From positions 248,001-312,000 of the forward strand of contig NW_017566995.1 of assembly GCF_001661265.1 (NCBI RefSeq): a stretch of DNA of 64,000 nt. Direction: 5' to 3'. The stretch is from Saitoella complicata NRRL Y-17804 (lineage: Eukaryota; Ascomycota; Saitoellomycetes; Saitoellales; Saitoellaceae). Under the pieces are notes generated by a model. It searched no databases and had not been told where the DNA came from. It saw nothing but the letters and a program-made list of their open reading frames with translations. The translations under genes and the position numbers were made by a program. Positions 41,123-62,571 of the stretch are shown piece by piece (within the stretch, counting starts at the first letter, position 1; each line of letters starts with the position of its first letter).

Positions 41123-41204
41123 CGTCAGCGACAGGACTCGAACCTGCGCACGGAGACCGTAAGAGATTTCTAATCTCTCTCCTTAACCACTCGGACACGC
41201 TGAC
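41123..41204 (-). tRNA. tRNA-Ser (AGA), copy 1
   Basis: Eighty-two nt with a 7-bp acceptor stem GTCAGCG/CGCTGAC, anticodon stem AGAGA/TCTCT around the loop TTAGAAA (anticodon AGA), a long class II variable arm and a GTTCGAG T-loop. No intron. It is identical over its full length to copies 2 and 3. Confidence 0.97.
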
Positions 41205-41834
41205 TGAATTGATGACTGCTTTCATTGATTGTGTTACTATTGGGGGGTTGTTCTGAATGCCAGCTGTTCCCGGAGTCGTGGTTACCTTGTACGTTTATGG
41301 TCCACTGCCATTCATATGCATGTTCGAGGTCAATGCCTCTTGACCGATACCAATAGTTGTCATATGCATGCTGCGTAGCATGGGTAATGCACACGTAAAC
41401 ATAGCTTTTACATCTCTTGAAAAAAGGCTTGGTAAGCGTGAGTTTTGTCGTCAGGACTTCAGTGATATATCAAAAAACACCAGTACCAAAGCATTGCACG
41501 ACTAAGCCGGTCGGGGAATCGCGAGTGTGGAAGTGTTCACAAAGAATTGCCATCGCGAGCGTAGGAAAGAAAGTCTTGAATGGGGAAGCTAGGCAAGTAT
41601 CTCACAGACCATTACCCAATGAATTGGAAGTAACGAGCGTGGCCAAGAAGAAGAAGAGTGGAAATCGAAAATAGATAAATTATTAAGCATATATTCCTAC
41701 GTTTATATGCAACAGACAATGACAATATCCAATATGCCCACGTTTCTGCCACTGTATATAGTCCCTAAGGCGACGGTATCAGAAAGATGCAACCAAAGGT
41801 AACATAAACTTTGACCAGGTATACCACACTGCCC
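41205..41834. other. Intergenic region between tRNA-Ser copy 1 and secreted protein 1
   Basis: About 630 nt, partly AT-rich around 41660-41760, presumably the 3' UTR of the secreted-protein gene (minus strand). A short plus-strand frame (41417-41674) has no recognisable product. Nothing else seen. Confidence 0.4.
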
Positions 41835-43787
41835 TTAGCGAAAGACATAAACTGTCTGCGTTCTTGCCAATGAAGAGACAATGGTTGAGATGATCGAGTT
41901 TGTCTGCGTTGCGACAACTGTGGTCGCATAGAGCGTGATGGGGTCCAAGGTCTGAGTTTCCACCGCTGTTGTGGTGGTCCCGTCACTCTCGACACTTGTA
42001 ACTGTATTCGCAACGTACGTCAAAGCCGAGGGCACACTGAGAGTAGTCCTCGTAAGAACAATCGAAGAGTTCTGCTGAACGATAATCGCAGTTTCAGTGG
42101 TAACAACCTCAGTCGTTCTGGATGGAACGGAGACAACAGAAGTTACGGGTTCGATGACTGTACGATTGTTGCCCATGACAGTTTTGATGACGGAAACCTG
42201 CTTCGTGATCGTCGTCGTAGGGTGGCCGTAAATGCGTGCGCATTGAGCAGAGACAGACTCCGCATCCTCTGACACCAACGCGTCAAAGTCGTCTTTATCG
42301 GAAACGTCACGCTCGAGGAATATGTATGTAAACGAATTGTACACAGCCGTGGTAGTTGTCAGAAGCGTAAGTTCGGTAGTTATCGTCGAGGGCACAATAT
42401 CAGTAGTGGTTGGTTGCACCGTCACTGTACTGAGGATGGTGTCGACAGAAGTGGTTGTAGTGAGGGTAGTCGTCGTGCTGGGAACCGCAACAACGTAAGT
42501 CGAGCTGATCACCTCTGTTGAGGTAGACAAAGAAACCTGGTTAGACGTCGACACAGCATGCGCAGTCAAGTTAACGATGAGCGGATATGTAGTGCTGTGC
42601 AACAATGTCGAGGTCGCGTTGACGTTTGGCGAGATGAACGTAGTTGAGGTTACGTACTGCGTGAAATCTACGGTCACGGTGCCCAAGAAGGAGGCACAGA
42701 GAGAAGATGTCACAGAGCCCTGGTAAGTAGAAGGCGAAGTTGTATTCATCATGTTGCCAGGACCGGACGGAATGAGAGTCGGTGATGACGAGTTCGTGGA
42801 CGTAGAGGTGGACGGGAGAAGAGTGTAGCCGGAGTGCGTGACGGAAGTGGAGGTAGCCGCAGGAATGGTACCGTTCGAGTATTTTGGACCTGTCATCGTG
42901 ACAGTACCAGTCTTCGTAACCGTATGAGTCGAGGTCCGAAGTCCACCAGTCGGCGAAGCACTCTGGGTAATCGTGTCTGTCAATGTCCTCGTCACTGTCG
43001 TAAGCCTAGAATTCCACTTGTTCGAAACGGTTTCCACGACCGTCTGCGTAGAACACGATTCGATCACATAGACCGTGTTCGTGGCAACAGCCTTTCCACC
43101 GACATACTCCGTGAGGGTAACGTGTCTCGTGGGCTTCACCAACTCGGAGTAGGGAAGGACGCACTTCTCCGAAGAGGTCTGGACATAGTAGCTGGTAGTC
43201 GGAGTAGCACCGATGGCAAAGACGGTAGATGTAAGATAGTAAGTCGAGGAGGCGGAAGTGATGAGCTGGGCGGAGTCAGTGACGAGTTGGTTGAGGGTAA
43301 CGGTAGCGACAGGACAGGAGAGTTGAGCGGAAGAGGCGGCAAAGATGACAACCGGAATGACGGTATTGGAGGACATGCTCCCTTGGCCGTTGACGCCGTT
43401 CAAACCGCTGGAATCACCGGAAGTACCAGAACCGCTCATAGAATCAGAGTGGCCTTGATTTCCGTTGGACACAATCGCGAGCCCGGTAGCTTGACCCGCA
43501 TTACCGAAAGTAGCCGTGGAAGCCCCCAAGGCACCACCCCCATTGACATAGGCGTTGGTGACGGTGCCAGTCGAAGTCACGACAGCCTGACCACCGTTCC
43601 CACCCGAGCCTCCAGAACCCCCCATACCACCACCACCTCCACCGCCGTTGCTGGAATGAGAACCGTCCGTATGATGCGTAACATTCCCGGACGTCCCGTT
43701 CGTGAACTGGCGATGCTTAAAAGTAGGCGAAGCGGACACAACAGCCAGTATGGAAGCTGTGGCTGTCAATGCTGAAAGAAGATGCAT
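41835..43787 (-). CDS. Secreted Ser/Thr-rich stalk protein 1 (no C-terminal Cys module)
   Basis: Intronless, 650 residues. A signal peptide (MHLLSALTATASILAVVSAS) is followed by a glycine-rich linker (about residues 45-68), then a long Ser/Thr/Val-rich body with many TTTxT and N-glycosylation sites. Landmarks shared with the two paralogues at 58193 and 60157 are: a CPVATVTLNQLVTDSAQLI block; YYVQTSSEKCVLPYSELV followed by LTEYVGGKAVAT; LCASFLGTVTVDFTQYV; and AQCARIYGHPTTTITKQVS followed by MGNNRTVIEPVTSVVSVP. It ends TQTVYVFR with neither a Cys-rich module nor a hydrophobic GPI-type tail. It is inferred to be a heavily O-glycosylated cell-surface or matrix protein. A TATA box lies at 43868-43875. 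Confidence 0.85.
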   Translation of the reverse strand: MHLLSALTATASILAVVSASPTFKHRQFTNGTSGNVTHHTDGSHSSNGGGGGGGMGGSGGSGGNGGQAVVTSTGTVTNAYVNGGGALGASTATFGNAGQATGLAIVSNGNQGHSDSMSGSGTSGDSSGLNGVNGQGSMSSNTVIPVVIFAASSAQLSCPVATVTLNQLVTDSAQLITSASSTYYLTSTVFAIGATPTTSYYVQTSSEKCVLPYSELVKPTRHVTLTEYVGGKAVATNTVYVIESCSTQTVVETVSNKWNSRLTTVTRTLTDTITQSASPTGGLRTSTHTVTKTGTVTMTGPKYSNGTIPAATSTSVTHSGYTLLPSTSTSTNSSSPTLIPSGPGNMMNTTSPSTYQGSVTSSLCASFLGTVTVDFTQYVTSTTFISPNVNATSTLLHSTTYPLIVNLTAHAVSTSNQVSLSTSTEVISSTYVVAVPSTTTTLTTTTSVDTILSTVTVQPTTTDIVPSTITTELTLLTTTTAVYNSFTYIFLERDVSDKDDFDALVSEDAESVSAQCARIYGHPTTTITKQVSVIKTVMGNNRTVIEPVTSVVSVPSRTTEVVTTETAIIVQQNSSIVLTRTTLSVPSALTYVANTVTSVESDGTTTTAVETQTLDPITLYATTVVATQTNSIISTIVSSLARTQTVYVFR

Positions 43788-57313: not shown

Positions 57314-57645
57314 GTTGTGAGTAGGCGGACCGAACGAGCGACTACGCGAAGTGAGTGAGGTGTGGGAGTGAAGGGAACGAAGCAATGCGTGGCGTGTTCT
57401 CCACTTAATGAGTTGATGGCTTTTGTAGGATACCTTGATATCGTTTATATACCGGTCATATCTTATCCTTTTCGTTCATGTCATGATTGTGGTCTGCCCC
57501 GCATTGTACATACGACGACCAAGGGTCGACCAGGCAAGGATGTCTGCTCAGAGGATATCAATGGAGTTGCAAATGAGCCTTTCTTGCCTTTCCCGCACTC
57601 TTCGTTTTCATTGCTTGCGAGAGGAGGAAAGAGAAAAAGAATTGA
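57314..57645. other. Intergenic region before tRNA-Ser copy 2
   Basis: No gene recognised. The last 45 nt share sequence (CATTGCTTGCGAGAGG and the GAGAAAAAGA stretch) with the 3' flank of tRNA-Ser copy 3. Confidence 0.4.
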
Positions 57646-57727
57646 CGTCAGCGACAGGACTCGAACCTGCGCACGGAGACCGTAAGAGATTTCTAATCTC
57701 TCTCCTTAACCACTCGGACACGCTGAC
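57646..57727 (-). tRNA. tRNA-Ser (AGA), copy 2
   Basis: Identical 82-nt sequence to copy 1, with the same AGA anticodon, long variable arm and matching acceptor stem. Its 5' flank (TGAATTGATGAC) is shared with copy 1 and its 3' flank with copy 3. Confidence 0.97.
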
Positions 57728-58192
57728 TGAATTGATGACGGGATTGGCCCCTTGCGTTCATTGCAATGACTGACAAAAAGGATGACACCTGGGGTTATTA
57801 AACTCAAGTTAGATGCTACAGTAGCTATCGACGTTGAGTCTTGATTTTCAAGCGAGTGCGATCTTTTAAAGTACCTAACAACCCTTAAAATCACCCCGGG
57901 TTCATCGGTGTCTCACGCTGTCTCAAATTCATTCAACGATCCCGTCGCCGGAGAAAGTAAACGAATGAGATGGCCGCGGTAATGAGCAGAGGTGGAGTTA
58001 TGTTTCACGTCGATATTCCAGTGTCAAACAACGTTATGAGGGTAAAGCAGGGGTGGTGAACGAAGCGAGAGATATAAATAGCCGTACAAGGTCCAGCTAC
58101 GGAGTGAAGGTTGGGATCGTTAGAAGCCCGTCACTCATTCTCTTGTTTTTCGACACTACTCTCTTCATCAACACTCTCTTGACGCAGTCATC
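57728..58192. promoter_or_regulatory. Promoter region of secreted protein 2
   Basis: 465 nt containing a TATA box at 58073-58080 and a short pyrimidine-rich leader before 58193. No other gene seen. Confidence 0.5.
58073..58080 (+). promoter_or_regulatory. TATA box of secreted protein 2
   Basis: TATAAATA about 113 nt upstream of the start codon. Confidence 0.6.
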
Positions 58193-59923
58193 ATGCGTTA
58201 CATCACGCTCTTTACCTCGGTGGCCGTCTCCTCGTTCACGGCTGGGACAGTTGTTGCGGCCTCCGTTCTCCATCCCGCGGCGCTCAACGTCACGGGCCCG
58301 TACCAGTTCGCCAACACGAGCGCTGCTCTCGTCGGTGCGGGAGATGTTGGGCAAGACATGGTCGCCTCCAGTCATGTTGCCGGTCCCGATGGTGGTTTTG
58401 CAATTGCTTCCGAGACACCAGTGCCCGTCGTCATCTACGAAGCAGAAGCCGAAGACTTCTATATAAGTGTTACGGACGTCTCGCCTGTCCAGCAAGCTAC
58501 GTCGGCGAATACTTGTCCAGCGCCTACCTTCACTTACGGCCAAGTCGTTACGAACCCCGCGCAAACGATCACTTCGGCCACTACAACTCACCTCCTCGCC
58601 TCCTCTACCTGTCTTGCCGGTACACTCACCTACTACATCCAGACCTCCTCCGCCGTCGCTGCACTCCCATACTCCGAGCTCACCGCCGCAACCCACACCC
58701 TCACAGTTACCGAGTTCATTGATGAACGCGTCGTCGCTACGGGGGTATGGGAGGTCAGTCCGAGTACGGTCACGGTCGTGAAGACAGTCGAGGGAACTGG
58801 TGTGTTTGAGATGGGCAAGGGAAAGACGTACACGATGAGCGAGAGTGGGGAAGTGGCGTATTGTAGTGAGAGCACGGTTGAAATCACCGAGACGGTGAAG
58901 CCAACGAAGACTGTGACGATTACGAGTTGGGTCACCATCTCCTCGTCTGTTCCGAGTCAGTCTTGGGCGTGGTTCGAGAGTGACGAGGTCGAGGCTTTGT
59001 GTGCATCTCTTGTTGGTACCGCGACGAGGGATGTGACGATGACCTCCACCTCCACCACATTCGTTCAAAACTTCGTTACGAGCACGTATGACTTGTTCAA
59101 TACGACCACCTACCCCGTCGCCCTCAACAAGACAGCTATCGCTTTCTTCACGTCCACGAATGTGGTGCCGGCGTACGCCACTGTCAACACATCCAGTGTC
59201 TACAACATCTCCGTCCCGAGCACCGCCCAAACGTCAACGACAAGCACCTTGATAGACGTGTCAGACGTGACCGAGACGCCGTATACCACAACGACCGAAG
59301 CAGTCCCTACCACGAGCACCACCGTCACGACTTCAGCCGTAACGTCGACTTCTACGACTTTTGTCTATCTGCCAAAGCGCGCAAACGGTGTTGTGGGTGC
59401 GTTCGATGCAGCCTTGGAGGAGAACGAGAATCGTGTCGTCGAGATGTGTCTCGCAAAGTTCGGCCGTTCCACGGTGACGCTTAGCCACGCTGCCACCGAA
59501 GTACAGAGTGTACTGGAGAAGAATGGCACAGTGATCAGCACCCGTACCTCCGTCATCTCCGCACCGGTCCTCGTACCCACCGTCATCACTACAACCACGC
59601 TCCCCATCACAGAACAAGTCACGTCGACATCCACGGTGACGGACGTCATTGCTGTTCCCTCCACAGTCACCTACATCGACGGGACCTCCACCCTCATCTC
59701 CGTCACCACCGTCTCCTCTACAATGACATTGACAGCACCCGCAATCGTCGTGACGGAGTCTACGCCTACTGTGGTTGGTACACAGACGCAAACGGTCACG
59801 ACGACGACAACGGTAGTGTTTGCGACGTGTGCCGCGCCTGGACAACCCTGCGATTTGTACAATCCAGGTGCCTGCTGTAATCTTATTTGTTTCCGCCAGG
59901 GACTGAACTCTTTCTGTGGTTAG
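58193..59923 (+). CDS. Secreted Ser/Thr-rich stalk protein 2 with C-terminal knottin-like module
   Basis: Intronless, 576 residues, paralogue of the proteins at 41835 and 60157. Signal peptide MRYITLFTSVAVSSFTAGTV. Shared landmarks: CPAPTFTYGQVVTNPAQTIT; YYIQTSSAVAALPYSELT and LTVTEFIDERVVATG; LCASLVGTATRDVTMTST; and FDAALEENENRVVEMCLAKF followed by LEKNGTVISTRTSVISAPV. A dibasic LPKR just before the last block is a candidate Kex2 site. The final 31 residues carry six cysteines spaced C-x6-C-x7-CC-x3-C-x8-C, fitting the inhibitor-cystine-knot spacing. No GPI tail. Function unknown; a glycosylated stalk bearing or releasing a small disulfide module is inferred. Confidence 0.85.
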   Translation: MRYITLFTSVAVSSFTAGTVVAASVLHPAALNVTGPYQFANTSAALVGAGDVGQDMVASSHVAGPDGGFAIASETPVPVVIYEAEAEDFYISVTDVSPVQQATSANTCPAPTFTYGQVVTNPAQTITSATTTHLLASSTCLAGTLTYYIQTSSAVAALPYSELTAATHTLTVTEFIDERVVATGVWEVSPSTVTVVKTVEGTGVFEMGKGKTYTMSESGEVAYCSESTVEITETVKPTKTVTITSWVTISSSVPSQSWAWFESDEVEALCASLVGTATRDVTMTSTSTTFVQNFVTSTYDLFNTTTYPVALNKTAIAFFTSTNVVPAYATVNTSSVYNISVPSTAQTSTTSTLIDVSDVTETPYTTTTEAVPTTSTTVTTSAVTSTSTTFVYLPKRANGVVGAFDAALEENENRVVEMCLAKFGRSTVTLSHAATEVQSVLEKNGTVISTRTSVISAPVLVPTVITTTTLPITEQVTSTSTVTDVIAVPSTVTYIDGTSTLISVTTVSSTMTLTAPAIVVTESTPTVVGTQTQTVTTTTTVVFATCAAPGQPCDLYNPGACCNLICFRQGLNSFCG

Positions 59924-60103
59924 CTATGTCTATAATAAAATTCTCTCTCTGTTGTTTCCCTTGCTTTCTCCGGCCGGCGGTGACTTTGACCGTACCCCGC
60001 CAACCCTTGCTTTCACTAGCGCGGGTCTGGCAGTTGGTCTGTGCGCTTCGGCCTAACCTTAATTTGCGAGAATTCAAAATATTATTGTTAGGCTTGGGGA
60101 GGA

Positions 60104-60109
60104 TATAAG
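60104..60109 (+). promoter_or_regulatory. TATA-like element of secreted protein 3
   Basis: TATAAG about 50 nt upstream of the start codon at 60157, in a 233-nt gap after secreted protein 2. Confidence 0.45.
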
Positions 60110-60156
60110 GAAGCCGTCCCGCCCCCGTCGAGGAGCGAGTACATACCTCGACAAAT

Positions 60157-62040
60157 ATGCGATTCGTGCCTCTTCTCGCCGCGGCTTCCCTGCTCAACTT
60201 GGCTTCGGCCTCCCCGGCGCTCCTCTGGCGCAGAAATGCCACCACCTTCTCAAACGCAACCGAGAACACGCACACCACGATCTCTACTTCGACTTTGACC
60301 CTCACTGAGCCTGCTGCTTCATTTGATGCTGCCGCGATCGCCGCTATCCAGGTCGGATCCGCTCCTTCGTTAGCCGGCGTTGCAGATGTCGACTCCAACA
60401 CAGCAACCACTACCCAGACTCACTTCGTTACCGTGGATTCTCCTATCACCAGCACTGAGATCGGCCAGTGCGCACAACCTACTGTTACCTTTGGACAGTT
60501 GATCACGGACTCAGCGCAATTGATCACCTCCGCTACTACAGACTACGCCATCGCTTCAACCTCTATCTCTGGAGCCCAAGACTATTCGTACTACGTCCAA
60601 ACCTCCTCAGCAGCTGCTGTCATCGCTTACTCAGACCTCTTCGCTTCTGTCCGGACGCTCACAATCACAGAGTACGTTGACGGTACTGCGATCGCGACTG
60701 GAACCTATGAGGTTGCTGCTACGGCCGTCGCCACTCCTGTGCTCACGACGCTCACCGAGCCAGAGGAGGTGGTTATTGGTGGCACTACCAGGACGCTTAC
60801 CGAGGGTGGAAGTGTCGCATATTTGACCACCACTACGACAACCGTGACGTCCACCATCCTCGCCGCTGGCTCTTCGAGCCCGACGAGTACTTCCGGGTGG
60901 AGCTGGAGTGGCGCTGAGGTTTTGGCACTCTGCCGCTCATTCGTCGGTACCCTTACGGAGGATGTCACCGGCACGGTGACCTCGACGGTATACCAACAAT
61001 CCAACACGACGAGTACTCTATCCGTGACTGCCAATAGCACGTATCCCGTCACTGTCCCTCGAACCGCTACCGAGCGCGCAACATCCACCTCCATCAACTA
61101 CGACCGTCGCAACGTTACCTCGAGCGTGTACTACAACGTATCAGTACCTAGCACGACAAGGACGGCGACTACGTCCACGTATGTCTCTCTATCCGAGCTC
61201 ACGGAGACTCCGGAGCCGGTTACGAGTACGTACCCCACCACCGAGGTTGAATCCACTGCTACCACGACGACTTCAACATCGTACAGCACATGGTCTTCTA
61301 CCACCCCTACTGCCCCTACTGTGACTGTTTACAAGAAACGTACGTTGAGTTTGGAAGATGAGTTCCAGGCTGCGGTTCGGGCTAACTCGCAGAGTGTGCG
61401 TAACGCATGTTTGGCAAACTTCGAGATGCCCACCGTCACGGTTTCGAAGGAGGTCCTCGCCGTGGAGACCATCGTCGAGAAGGACGGCACGGTGGTTGCC
61501 ACCCATGTCTCCGTAGCGTCTACTCCCGTCTTCGTCACTACTATTGTGGCTACGGCTACCTCCCAGGTTGTCGATATGTTGAACCAGACGATTACGTCTT
61601 CGTTTACGCAGAGCGTGCCGACGTCCGTTACGTACGTAGCGAGCACGGCTACTGATATCACAGTTCAGACGCTCAATTCTACCATTATTACCACGCTCCC
61701 CGCTGCTACGATCTCGGCGTACAGCACAACGACAGAGACTGCAGTTTCGACTTCCACGATCGTGTCCACCGTCCTGCGTTGTCCCATCCCCGACTCCCAA
61801 AGGCGATCAGCGGTAGGCACGATCGGTATTGATCGACCTAGTACCGGCCAACTTCTTGTCGTGAGCGCTGCGTCTGGTGAGGATTGTTGTGTAGTGTGTT
61901 ATACGACGGTGGGGTGTTCCGCCTTTGTGTATTGGGGTCCACAGTTCTGTGTCCTTGCTACATCGGGGACTGATACTTGTAGCGCGAGTAGCGTGTACTT
62001 GATTGAGAATGAAGGTGGTCCGGGTGGGTATTTGTGTTGA
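60157..62040 (+). CDS. Secreted Ser/Thr-rich stalk protein 3 with C-terminal apple/PAN-like module
   Basis: Intronless, 627 residues, tandem with protein 2. Signal peptide MRFVPLLAAASLLNLASASP. Landmarks: CAQPTVTFGQLITDSAQLIT; YYVQTSSAAAVIAYSDLF and LTITEYVDGTAIATGTYEV; LCRSFVGTLTEDVTGTVTS; and FQAAVRANSQSVRNACLANF followed by VEKDGTVVATHVSVASTPV. YKKR precedes the last block, the same place as LPKR in protein 2. After the stalk, about 90 residues form a Cys-rich module (DCCVVCYTTVGCSAFVYW then FCVLATSGTDTC) resembling fungal apple/PAN-like domains, which bind carbohydrate or protein in other contexts. Function is inferred to be cell-surface or matrix. Confidence 0.85.
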   Translation: MRFVPLLAAASLLNLASASPALLWRRNATTFSNATENTHTTISTSTLTLTEPAASFDAAAIAAIQVGSAPSLAGVADVDSNTATTTQTHFVTVDSPITSTEIGQCAQPTVTFGQLITDSAQLITSATTDYAIASTSISGAQDYSYYVQTSSAAAVIAYSDLFASVRTLTITEYVDGTAIATGTYEVAATAVATPVLTTLTEPEEVVIGGTTRTLTEGGSVAYLTTTTTTVTSTILAAGSSSPTSTSGWSWSGAEVLALCRSFVGTLTEDVTGTVTSTVYQQSNTTSTLSVTANSTYPVTVPRTATERATSTSINYDRRNVTSSVYYNVSVPSTTRTATTSTYVSLSELTETPEPVTSTYPTTEVESTATTTTSTSYSTWSSTTPTAPTVTVYKKRTLSLEDEFQAAVRANSQSVRNACLANFEMPTVTVSKEVLAVETIVEKDGTVVATHVSVASTPVFVTTIVATATSQVVDMLNQTITSSFTQSVPTSVTYVASTATDITVQTLNSTIITTLPAATISAYSTTTETAVSTSTIVSTVLRCPIPDSQRRSAVGTIGIDRPSTGQLLVVSAASGEDCCVVCYTTVGCSAFVYWGPQFCVLATSGTDTCSASSVYLIENEGGPGGYLC

Positions 62041-62333
62041 TGAGGTAGAAGGGAAGACGTGATGTGAGGAGTCCAGAATAATGTAATGTTTAACAGCAAA
62101 TATATGAAGGTCCGACAATTCCCTTGTTCAATCGTTAGCGAGCAACACATTCCGAGACGGTGCCCTAGTTTTGTACTCAGCCTGTCTGACTGTAGACATC
62201 GGTAACATGAAGATACGGCGGTCTTGTTTCCCTAACCATACCCGGCTCACACTTTGAATGTAGCCCGTGAGAAATGAGTCCCGCTCGCATCAATGGTATA
62301 TGGTTGTTTCCAATAAAACTCGTCATCTGTCCA

Positions 62334-62415
62334 GTCAGCGTGTCCGAGTGGTTAAGGAGAGAGATTAGAAATCTCTTACGGTCTCCGTGCGCAGGTTCGA
62401 GTCCTGTCGCTGACG
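62334..62415 (+). tRNA. tRNA-Ser (AGA), copy 3
   Basis: Same 82-nt sequence as copies 1 and 2, on the opposite strand. It follows secreted protein 3 by about 290 nt, in the same relative orientation as copy 1 follows secreted protein 1. Confidence 0.97.
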
Positions 62416-62571
62416 TCAATCTTTTTCTCTTTCCCCCCTCTCGCAAGCAATGACTTGGGATCAATGCACCATCGGCCGCCGCAGTAAGAATACCGTGTCC
62501 TCTATTGCCATTAGGCTAAATCAATACCAATACCACACCTATCCTATCCTCTCCTCCTCCTCCTTATCAGC

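What the first reader, a model, noticed from the sequence alone, without database searches (positions are those of the whole stretch)
58193..62040. Secreted stalk-protein family with interchangeable C-terminal cysteine modules
Three intronless secreted Ser/Thr/Val-rich proteins (also 41835-43787) align at four landmarks in the same order: a C-x-P-type QLVT block, a YYVQTSS...YSEL...LTEY block, an LC-S-F/L-GT block and a CLA-F...NGTV block. Yet each ends differently: nothing, a six-Cys knottin-like module, or an apple/PAN-like module. Stalk conservation with exchanged ends is what a modular display or release system would look like. I recognise no named family for the shared stalk.
Basis: partly seen in the sequence, partly recalled or inferred. 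Interest (0 to 1): 0.75.

Follow-up and report, generated by a model that had tools for sequence, protein, structure and literature searches.

The report
Yeast stalk proteins with different heads
A little-studied soil yeast carries a small family of secreted, sugar-coatable stalk proteins that share one stalk but end in different cysteine-rich heads, most likely a lineage-specific set of cell-surface adhesive proteins built on a plan already known from fission yeast.

Summary
Three Ser/Thr-rich ORFs share four ordered blocks far above shuffled controls. They end with nothing, a six-Cys knottin-like module, or an eight-Cys PAN-like module. The genome is most likely Saitoella complicata. Relatives were found only in Saitoella: a fourth paralogue with blocks 1-2 only (P0004) and two S. 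coloradoensis proteins. The searches were insensitive.

Ongoing exchange of ends is not supported. Across the two species, knottin ends stay on P2-type stalks (3 of 3) and PAN ends on P3-type stalks (2 of 2). Heads diverge faster than stalks, but so do the N-terminal spacers. The genome's one GLEYA (lectin-type) protein may share blocks 3-4 and a dibasic site; this is tentative, with mixed tests.

Best reading: secreted wall proteins without a GPI anchor, displaying C-terminal heads like fission-yeast adhesins, with a probable Kex2 site between two conserved cysteines. Secretion, cleavage, location and binding are inferred; both structure predictions failed. New variant of a known kind.

Separate oddity: five of seven identical tRNA-Ser(AGA) genes lie within 25 kb here.

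The parts
41835..43787 (-). P1: stalk protein without a C-terminal module, 650 aa
   Evidence: homology
43095..43316 (-). P1 blocks 1-2 (residues 158-231)
42573..42728 (-). P1 block 3 (LCASFLGT)
42309..42314 (-). P1 Glu-Arg at the place of the paralogues' dibasic site (no dibasic pair anywhere in P1)
42123..42305 (-). P1 block 4 (diverged)
58193..59923 (+). P2: stalk protein with knottin-like C-terminus, 576 aa
   Evidence: P2-type proteins P0006 and P0005
58514..58723 (+). P2 blocks 1-2
58964..59125 (+). P2 block 3
59375..59380 (+). P2 Lys-Arg, the only dibasic pair of the protein (candidate Kex2 site)
   Evidence: P_proprotein (kexin-type) frame in the genome
59402..59575 (+). P2 block 4
59828..59917 (+). 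P2 six-Cys knottin-like module (C-x6-C-x7-CC-x3-C-x8-C)
   Evidence: weak matches
60157..62040 (+). P3: stalk protein with PAN-like C-terminus, 627 aa
60469..60684 (+). P3 blocks 1-2
60898..61056 (+). P3 block 3
61333..61341 (+). P3 Lys-Lys-Arg (candidate Kex2 site) directly before block 4; P3 has three further dibasic pairs (residues 25, 317, 549)
61342..61536 (+). P3 block 4
61780..62037 (+). P3 eight-Cys PAN-like module
   Evidence: PAN_4 E 0.005-0.016, below cut-off; eight Cys kept in P0005, where PAN_1 E 6e-4, also below cut-off

Best explanation
These are secreted cell-wall or matrix glycoproteins that work like fission-yeast adhesins: a Ser/Thr-rich, heavily glycosylatable stalk without a GPI signal, carrying a disulphide-rich binding head at the C-terminus. 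SHOWN: the common stalk; two head types that stay with their stalk subtype in two species; no hydrophobic C-terminal tail; one cysteine each in blocks 1, 3 and 4 of P1, P2, P3, P0006 and P0005; a Lys-Arg between the block-3 and block-4 cysteines in the head-bearing stalks but not in P1; heads less conserved than the stalk. INFERRED: the signal peptide leads to secretion; Kex2 cuts at the Lys-Arg; the block-3 and block-4 cysteines form a disulphide that keeps the head-bearing C-chain on the N-chain; the block-1 cysteine (the only cysteine of P0004) links the protein to another chain or to the wall; the heads bind glycans or proteins on other cells or surfaces. P1 would be an uncut, headless version.
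For: Homology of stalks. Ends stable with stalk subtype: in the half after the dibasic site P3/P0005C 75%, P2/P0006 67%, P0005N/P0006 74%, against 34-38% between subtypes; IQ-TREE (LG+F+G4) groups P3+P0005C (SH-aLRT/bootstrap 91/91) and P2+P0005N+P0006 (93/94), just under the usual 95. Dibasic sites and cysteine layout (P0007). P_proprotein (kexin-type) frame in the genome (E 1.3e-27). The one GLEYA protein found in the genome has a C-terminal head on a Ser/Thr-rich stalk whose single dibasic pair lies between its second and third stalk cysteines; the blocks 3-4 profile whole score (84.6) lies above 1000 of 1000 shuffles of each of three kinds without null2 correction (maxima 80.7, 81.5, 83.7). 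Fission-yeast adhesins: Ser/Thr-rich repeats, no GPI signal, C-terminal GLEYA or DIPSY head (PMC6023273 section 12; PMC13147542 passage). Kex2-dependent shedding of the Ser/Thr-rich flocculin Flo11 (PMC8617999 passage). PAN-module wall protein Ss-Sl2 (PMC3338822 passages).
Against: No expression, location, cleavage or binding data. The P0007 link is mixed: only 3 of 8 block-3/4 tests reach 4 or fewer of 1000 shuffles (the others 25, 72, 77 out of place, 125, 282), blocks 1-2 are at or near chance (37 to 923 of 1000), and whole-stalk scores (162-198) do not clear the shuffle maxima (167-208); under HMMER's composition correction its scores are negative and an unrelated frame ranks above it; the reversed sequence gives a better best-domain score (38.8 against 34.4); single-sequence search does not see it. 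N-terminal spacers diverge as much as heads, so fast heads need not mean selection. Map4, a fission-yeast adhesin, is not released from walls by reducing disulphides (PMC6023273 section 12), so a disulphide wall link has no support there. AlphaFold2 models were uninformative. DIPSY was not found, though its control rang nowhere.
Confidence: 0.5

Rival explanations
1. Structural wall mannoproteins (mucin-like spacers): the stalk is the working part, giving hydration or cross-linking, and the cysteine-rich ends merely anchor or stabilise; no specific ligand.
For: The stalk is the best-conserved part and the heads among the least (stalk 66-75%, heads without Cys 16-48%); P1 has no head and P0004 has neither head type; 7-9 N-glycosylation sequons and S+T about a third in P1-P3.
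Against: All eight cysteines of the PAN-like end are kept over the species split, and five of six (six of six in P2 and P0006) in the knottin-like end, so a fold is maintained.
Confidence: 0.27
2. Precursors of secreted cysteine-rich peptides: Kex2 cuts and further proteolysis free the C-terminal part, so that the knottin or PAN piece acts at a distance (antimicrobial, inhibitor or signal) and the stalk is a carrier.
For: Dibasic site before block 4; six-Cys framework with weak matches to cystine-knot peptides (PDB E 0.015 for P0006, 0.61 for P2; Pfam PF06357, a spider cystine-knot peptide family, E 0.048 and 13.9 bits against a cut-off of 22 for P0006; these say nothing about a toxic function); low conservation of heads.
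Against: No dibasic pair lies directly before the heads: the nearest upstream one is about 150 residues away in P2 and P3, and P3 has one inside its PAN-like end, so a free small head would need another protease. No repeated cores as in Kex2-processed repeat proteins (definition in PMC6339444 passages).
Confidence: 0.15
3. No real family: the blocks align because all three are low-complexity Ser/Thr-rich sequences.
For: Composition is extreme, and one of three inter-block control stretches (P3 190-245) does not align above shuffles.
Against: Every block in P1, P2 and P0006 scores above 500 of 500 composition-preserving shuffles at the homologous place; P2-type proteins in a second species.
Confidence: 0.01

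Closest known systems
Fission-yeast C-terminal-head adhesins (Map4, Mam3 and other GLEYA/DIPSY proteins; Linder and Gustafsson 2008, seen only as cited in PMC6023273 section 12 and a passage of PMC13147542)
   Same: Secreted, Ser/Thr-rich, no GPI signal, head at the C-terminus rather than the N-terminus, same subphylum (Taphrinomycotina). A GLEYA protein exists in this genome and may share the stalk's second half.
   Different: P1-P3 carry no GLEYA or DIPSY but knottin-like, PAN-like or no heads; no direct repeats of 30 nt or more were found in their genes; homology to the fission-yeast proteins was not tested.
Flo11-type flocculins of Saccharomyces (PMC8617999 passages)
   Same: Ser/Thr-rich surface glycoprotein; Kex2-linked processing.
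   Different: Flo11 has an N-terminal head and a C-terminal GPI-derived wall link; here the head is C-terminal and no GPI tail is visible.
Ss-Sl2, PAN-module wall protein of Sclerotinia (PMC3338822 passages); CBEL of oomycetes (PMC3532174 passages)
   Same: Secreted, PAN-like modules, proposed carbohydrate or protein binding; wall location for Ss-Sl2 and CBEL as those passages state.
   Different: Two PAN modules (Ss-Sl2) or CBM1-PAN pairs (CBEL) in short proteins (352 and about 268 residues) instead of one PAN-like end on a stalk of about 540 residues.
Inhibitor cystine knot (knottin) peptides
   Same: Six cysteines in C-C-CC-C-C order.
   Different: Here a C-terminal module on a 500-residue stalk; disulphide pairing and fold untested; best PDB match only E 0.015.
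Kex2-processed repeat proteins (PMC6339444 passages)
   Same: Signal peptide and dibasic site.
   Different: No repeated peptide cores separated by such sites.

Membership tests
Fission-yeast type C-terminal-head adhesins | Secretion signal plus long Ser/Thr-rich region | tested here: met
   N-termini and S+T content, (signal peptide judged by hydropathy; no SignalP available)
Fission-yeast type C-terminal-head adhesins | No GPI addition signal | tested here: met
   C-terminal 25 residues mean hydropathy -0.07 to 0.35 in P1-P3, no hydrophobic tail; no GPI predictor available
Fission-yeast type C-terminal-head adhesins | C-terminal GLEYA or DIPSY domain | tested here: not met
   Neither in P1-P3 at E up to 10; GLEYA only on P0007 outside the window. 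Hence 'works like', not 'is a member'
Fission-yeast type C-terminal-head adhesins | Mediates cell adhesion | not testable with these tools
   needs experiment
PAN/Apple domain (P3 end) | Profile score over Pfam cut-off | tested here: not met
   PAN_4 15.7 and 17.3 bits against 27; counterpart in P0005 PAN_1 20.0 against 21.4
PAN/Apple domain (P3 end) | Core cysteines conserved | tested here: inconclusive
   eight Cys of P3 all kept in P0005; pairing not tested, no confident model
Knottin / inhibitor cystine knot (P2 end) | Six Cys in order C-C-CC-C-C | tested here: met
   P2 and P0006 six of six; P0005 five, the last lost where its gene model runs on
Knottin / inhibitor cystine knot (P2 end) | Profile score over Pfam cut-off of a cystine-knot family | tested here: not met
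   P2: no family; P0006: PF06357 13.9 bits against 22
Knottin / inhibitor cystine knot (P2 end) | Knotted disulphide fold | not tested
   no structure job was run on this end; PDB sequence matches weak
Kex2 substrates | KR/RR site in a secreted protein, and a kexin in the genome | tested here: met
   P2 and P3 yes, P1 no; P_proprotein domain frame (catalytic domain not searched)
Kex2 substrates | Cleavage at the site | not testable with these tools
   needs experiment
Named Pfam/NCBIfam family for the stalk | Significant profile match in the stalk | tested here: not met
   (only a sub-threshold EIID-AGA match, E 0.067, in the N-terminal spacer of P3)

The most novel reading that the evidence does not exclude
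The stalk is a two-chain display device. Kex2 nicks each head-bearing protein between two conserved cysteines, and a disulphide alone keeps the head-bearing chain on the wall-bound chain, so that reduction or disulphide exchange releases the head. A conserved stalk, itself made of two separable halves (blocks 1-2 in P0004, blocks 3-4 in the GLEYA protein), has been paired in one genus with at least three unrelated, fast-diverging heads (knottin, PAN, GLEYA), while the headless P1 lacks the cut site.
Probability: 0.2. Interest if true: 0.65.

Novelty: new variant of a known kind. Interest (0 to 1): 0.45.

Why it matters
Adhesive surface proteins outside Saccharomyces and Candida are only sparsely described (PMC6023273, abstract passage and section 12). 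A small set in an early-diverging ascomycete, with one stalk and several heads, offers a clean case for asking how C-terminal-head adhesins arise, whether heads evolve faster than stalks because of selection, and whether Kex2 plus a disulphide can act as a release catch.

Tried and rejected
Chance alignment of Ser/Thr-rich sequence: rejected. Hidden or decayed knottin after P1's stop: similar letters, not significant, dropped. Internal repeat between blocks 3 and 4: same register, but hhalign E 0.09 and probability 0.6%, dropped; the two strong rows are artefacts (b4-linkC is the second block 4 of P0005 lying in that slice; b12a-b12b are slices that overlap). tRNA-Ser genes as remnants of stalk-gene duplication: copies share only 95-134 bp, so the tRNA cassettes spread on their own. 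A Ser-codon reason for the tRNA cluster: TCY share of Ser codons in P1-P3 is 0.43-0.55 against 0.30-0.70 in seven other window ORFs, no signal. P0005 as proof of a real fusion gene: cannot be told from a gene model that joins two neighbours, because no S. coloradoensis DNA was at hand. Trees under the C20 mixture model were unresolved, with very long branches; the simpler LG+F+G4 trees are the ones used. Structure models: mean pLDDT 31.8 (P3) and 36.3 (P2 blocks 1-2), so no fold search was run. PAN_4 matches elsewhere in the genome lie in frames without a Ser/Thr stalk that look by eye like glycosyltransferases. The profiles were cut roughly (the P2 and P0006 rows run into the knottin-like end, the P0005 row further), which adds noise to the P0007 test.
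Full report
WHAT IS THERE. The window is a 64-kb piece of contig C4 of a 14.12-Mb, 34-contig genome. It is most likely Saitoella complicata: its closest protein hits are S. coloradoensis, and the published S. complicata assembly is 14.1 Mb (PMC4447899, whole text read). The name is an inference, since the genome is given without one. Three ORFs match the finding: P1 41835-43787(-), P2 58193-59923(+) and P3 60157-62040(+). P2 and P3 are tandem, 233 bp apart. Each ORF starts with a signal-peptide-like stretch and shows no hydrophobic C-terminal tail.

IS IT MORE THAN CHANCE. Yes. Smith-Waterman scores of 603, 609 and 770 stand against maxima of 278, 268 and 318 in 200 local-composition shuffles per pair. 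Taken one by one, all four P3 blocks hit the homologous place in P1, P2 and the S. coloradoensis protein P0006, with 0 of 500 shuffles as good in each of 12 tests. In the fourth paralogue P0004 only blocks 1-2 do so (0 of 500 each); blocks 3 and 4 do not (303 and 344 of 500). The stretches between blocks are not all neutral: 330-390 and 470-540 also align above shuffles in P1, P2 and P0006, 190-245 does not.

HOW MANY RELATIVES. In its own genome, P3 (E up to 0.001) and P2 (E up to 10) as queries find P1, P2, P3 and P0004 on contig C1, and nothing else. Against 5.8 billion proteins, the four-sequence profile gave 2 hits of 7992 scored candidates, P1 alone 1 of 7986, and block 1-2 of P2 3 of 175. 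Hits other than the window's own proteins are two S. coloradoensis proteins, P0005 and P0006. These searches are not sensitive for Ser/Thr-rich proteins: searches missed P0002 and P0006, which the database holds, and one search did not return its own query. 'Saitoella only' is what was found, not what was proved. No Pfam or NCBIfam family matches the stalk above threshold.

DO THE ENDS MOVE. Not between these two species. P0006 is a full P2-type protein with a complete six-Cys end (62% identity to P2 in BLASTP). P0005 is a P2-type stalk with a knottin-type end that lacks the last Cys, followed by the second half of a P3-type stalk and its PAN-like end. It is either a real fusion or a gene model that joins two neighbouring genes; no DNA was available to decide. 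Either way the same two types stand in the same order as in the window. In the half after the dibasic site, identities are 75% for P3/P0005C and 66-74% among the P2 types, against 34-38% across types; the tree groups them likewise (91/91 and 93/94; the order within the P2 group is unresolved, 24/43). The ends were thus acquired or exchanged before the species split and have stayed put since.

HEADS CHANGE FAST. Leaving out Cys, heads are 36, 48, 16 and 24% identical in the four pairs compared (P2/P0006, P0006/P0005N, P2/P0005N, P3/P0005C), where the stalks are 71, 75, 66 and 73%. In three of four pairs the head is less alike than every stalk window of the same length (0 of 412, 0 of 413, 0 of 69); in P0006/P0005N 26 of 405 windows are as low. 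The N-terminal spacers (35, 33 and 26% in the three pairs where they could be compared) are just as free, so this may be relaxed constraint rather than selection.

ANATOMY. P1, P2, P3, P0006 and P0005 each have one Cys in block 1, one in block 3 and one in block 4 (P0005 two block 4s); P1, P2, P0005 and P0006 have one to three more in the stalk. P0004's only Cys is that of block 1. A Lys-Arg stands between the block-3 and block-4 cysteines in P2, P3 and P0006 and before both block 4s of P0005; P1 has Glu-Arg there and no dibasic pair at all. It is not the only dibasic pair in P3 (also 25, 317, 549) or P0006 (also 414). The genome has a P_proprotein (kexin-type) frame (E 1.3e-27). From this I infer, without direct evidence, a Kex2 cut whose two products may be held together by a block 3-block 4 disulphide.

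A POSSIBLE LINK TO A KNOWN ADHESIN DOMAIN. Fission-yeast adhesins are described as Ser/Thr-rich, without GPI signal, with C-terminal GLEYA or DIPSY heads (PMC6023273 section 12 read; PMC13147542 passage). I therefore looked for these domains. DIPSY: no match, but the control rang nowhere. GLEYA: one protein, P0007, 774 aa on C25, GLEYA at 644-734 (E 1.4e-31). Its stalk has 'LCQSYLGNVTV', 'TYNVSVP', one Lys-Arg, then 'VSSMC', in the order of blocks 3 and 4. For: P3 block 3 beats 1000 of 1000 shuffles, P2 and P0006 block 4 beat 997 and 996. The blocks 3-4 profile whole score (84.6) beats 1000 of 1000 shuffles of each of three kinds without null2 correction, by small margins (maxima 80.7, 81.5, 83.7), and 998, 999 and 1000 of 1000 with it. 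Without correction P0007 is the best-scoring protein outside the family among 47 partly redundant Ser/Thr-rich frames (83.9; next protein P0004 64.2, then 18.5). Against: the other five block-3/4 tests give 25, 72, 77 (out of place), 125 and 282 of 1000, blocks 1-2 37 to 923 of 1000, and whole-stalk scores do not clear the shuffle maxima. With HMMER's composition correction the score is negative, and an unrelated frame ranks above P0007. By best single domain, 111-184 of 1000 shuffles and the reversed sequence do as well. P0007 as a query finds only itself.

MOST LIKELY FUNCTION. Secreted wall or matrix proteins that display a C-terminal head, working like fission-yeast adhesins, though not members of that set because neither defining domain is present in P1-P3. 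Shown: homology, head types, stability of ends, cysteine and dibasic layout. Inferred: secretion, glycosylation, cleavage, disulphide link, ligand binding. Two AlphaFold2 runs gave no usable model.

IN PRINT. Searches for Saitoella (76 papers, 30 listed), Saitoella with secreted and adhesin (1 paper, unrelated) and Saitoella with cell wall protein (2 papers, neither opened) listed nothing on this family by title or start of abstract; 46 of the 76 were not seen. In Taphrina, in the same subphylum, secreted effector candidates enriched in Cys, Ser, Thr, Val and Pro are described (PMC7036362 passages); no sequence link was tested.

A SEPARATE ODDITY. Seven identical tRNA-Ser(AGA) genes were found in the genome; five lie at C4:289123-313841, interspersed with P1-P3, and two on C17. 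The copies share 95-134 bp including short flanks.

Noticed in passing
41123-41204(-), 57646-57727(-), 62334-62415(+); and beyond the window at C4:312129-312210 and 313760-313841 (held in L016): Five of the seven identical tRNA-Ser(AGA) genes found in the genome lie within 25 kb around the three stalk genes; the other two lie 30 kb apart on C17. Copies share only the tRNA and short flanks (95-134 bp).
   Followed up: partly
57608-57745 and 62316-62453: The P2-P3 pair is bracketed by inverted copies of the tRNA-Ser cassette (138 nt, 91% complementary), a possible substrate for inversion.
   Followed up: no
L037:2638-4962(-) (G000:C25): The one GLEYA/PA14-type protein over cut-off found in the genome, 774 aa, C-terminal head on a Ser/Thr-rich stalk that may share blocks 3-4 with the window family.
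   Followed up: partly
L004:895-2526(-) (G000:C1): Fourth paralogue, P0004, with blocks 1-2 only and a second half without any Pfam match; it has a single Cys.
   Followed up: partly
P0005 (S. coloradoensis YB2330_004969): Deposited protein appears to join neighbouring counterparts of P2 and P3; probably a gene-model fusion, possibly a real one.
   Followed up: partly
41796-41834 (downstream of P1's stop, minus strand): In-frame letters resembling the start of the P2 knottin directly after P1's stop codon; not significant.
   Followed up: yes
L032, L033, L034 (C26, C3, C26): PAN_4 matches (two over cut-off, one just below) lie in frames that look, by eye, like a glycosyltransferase family with a C-terminal PAN.
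   Followed up: no
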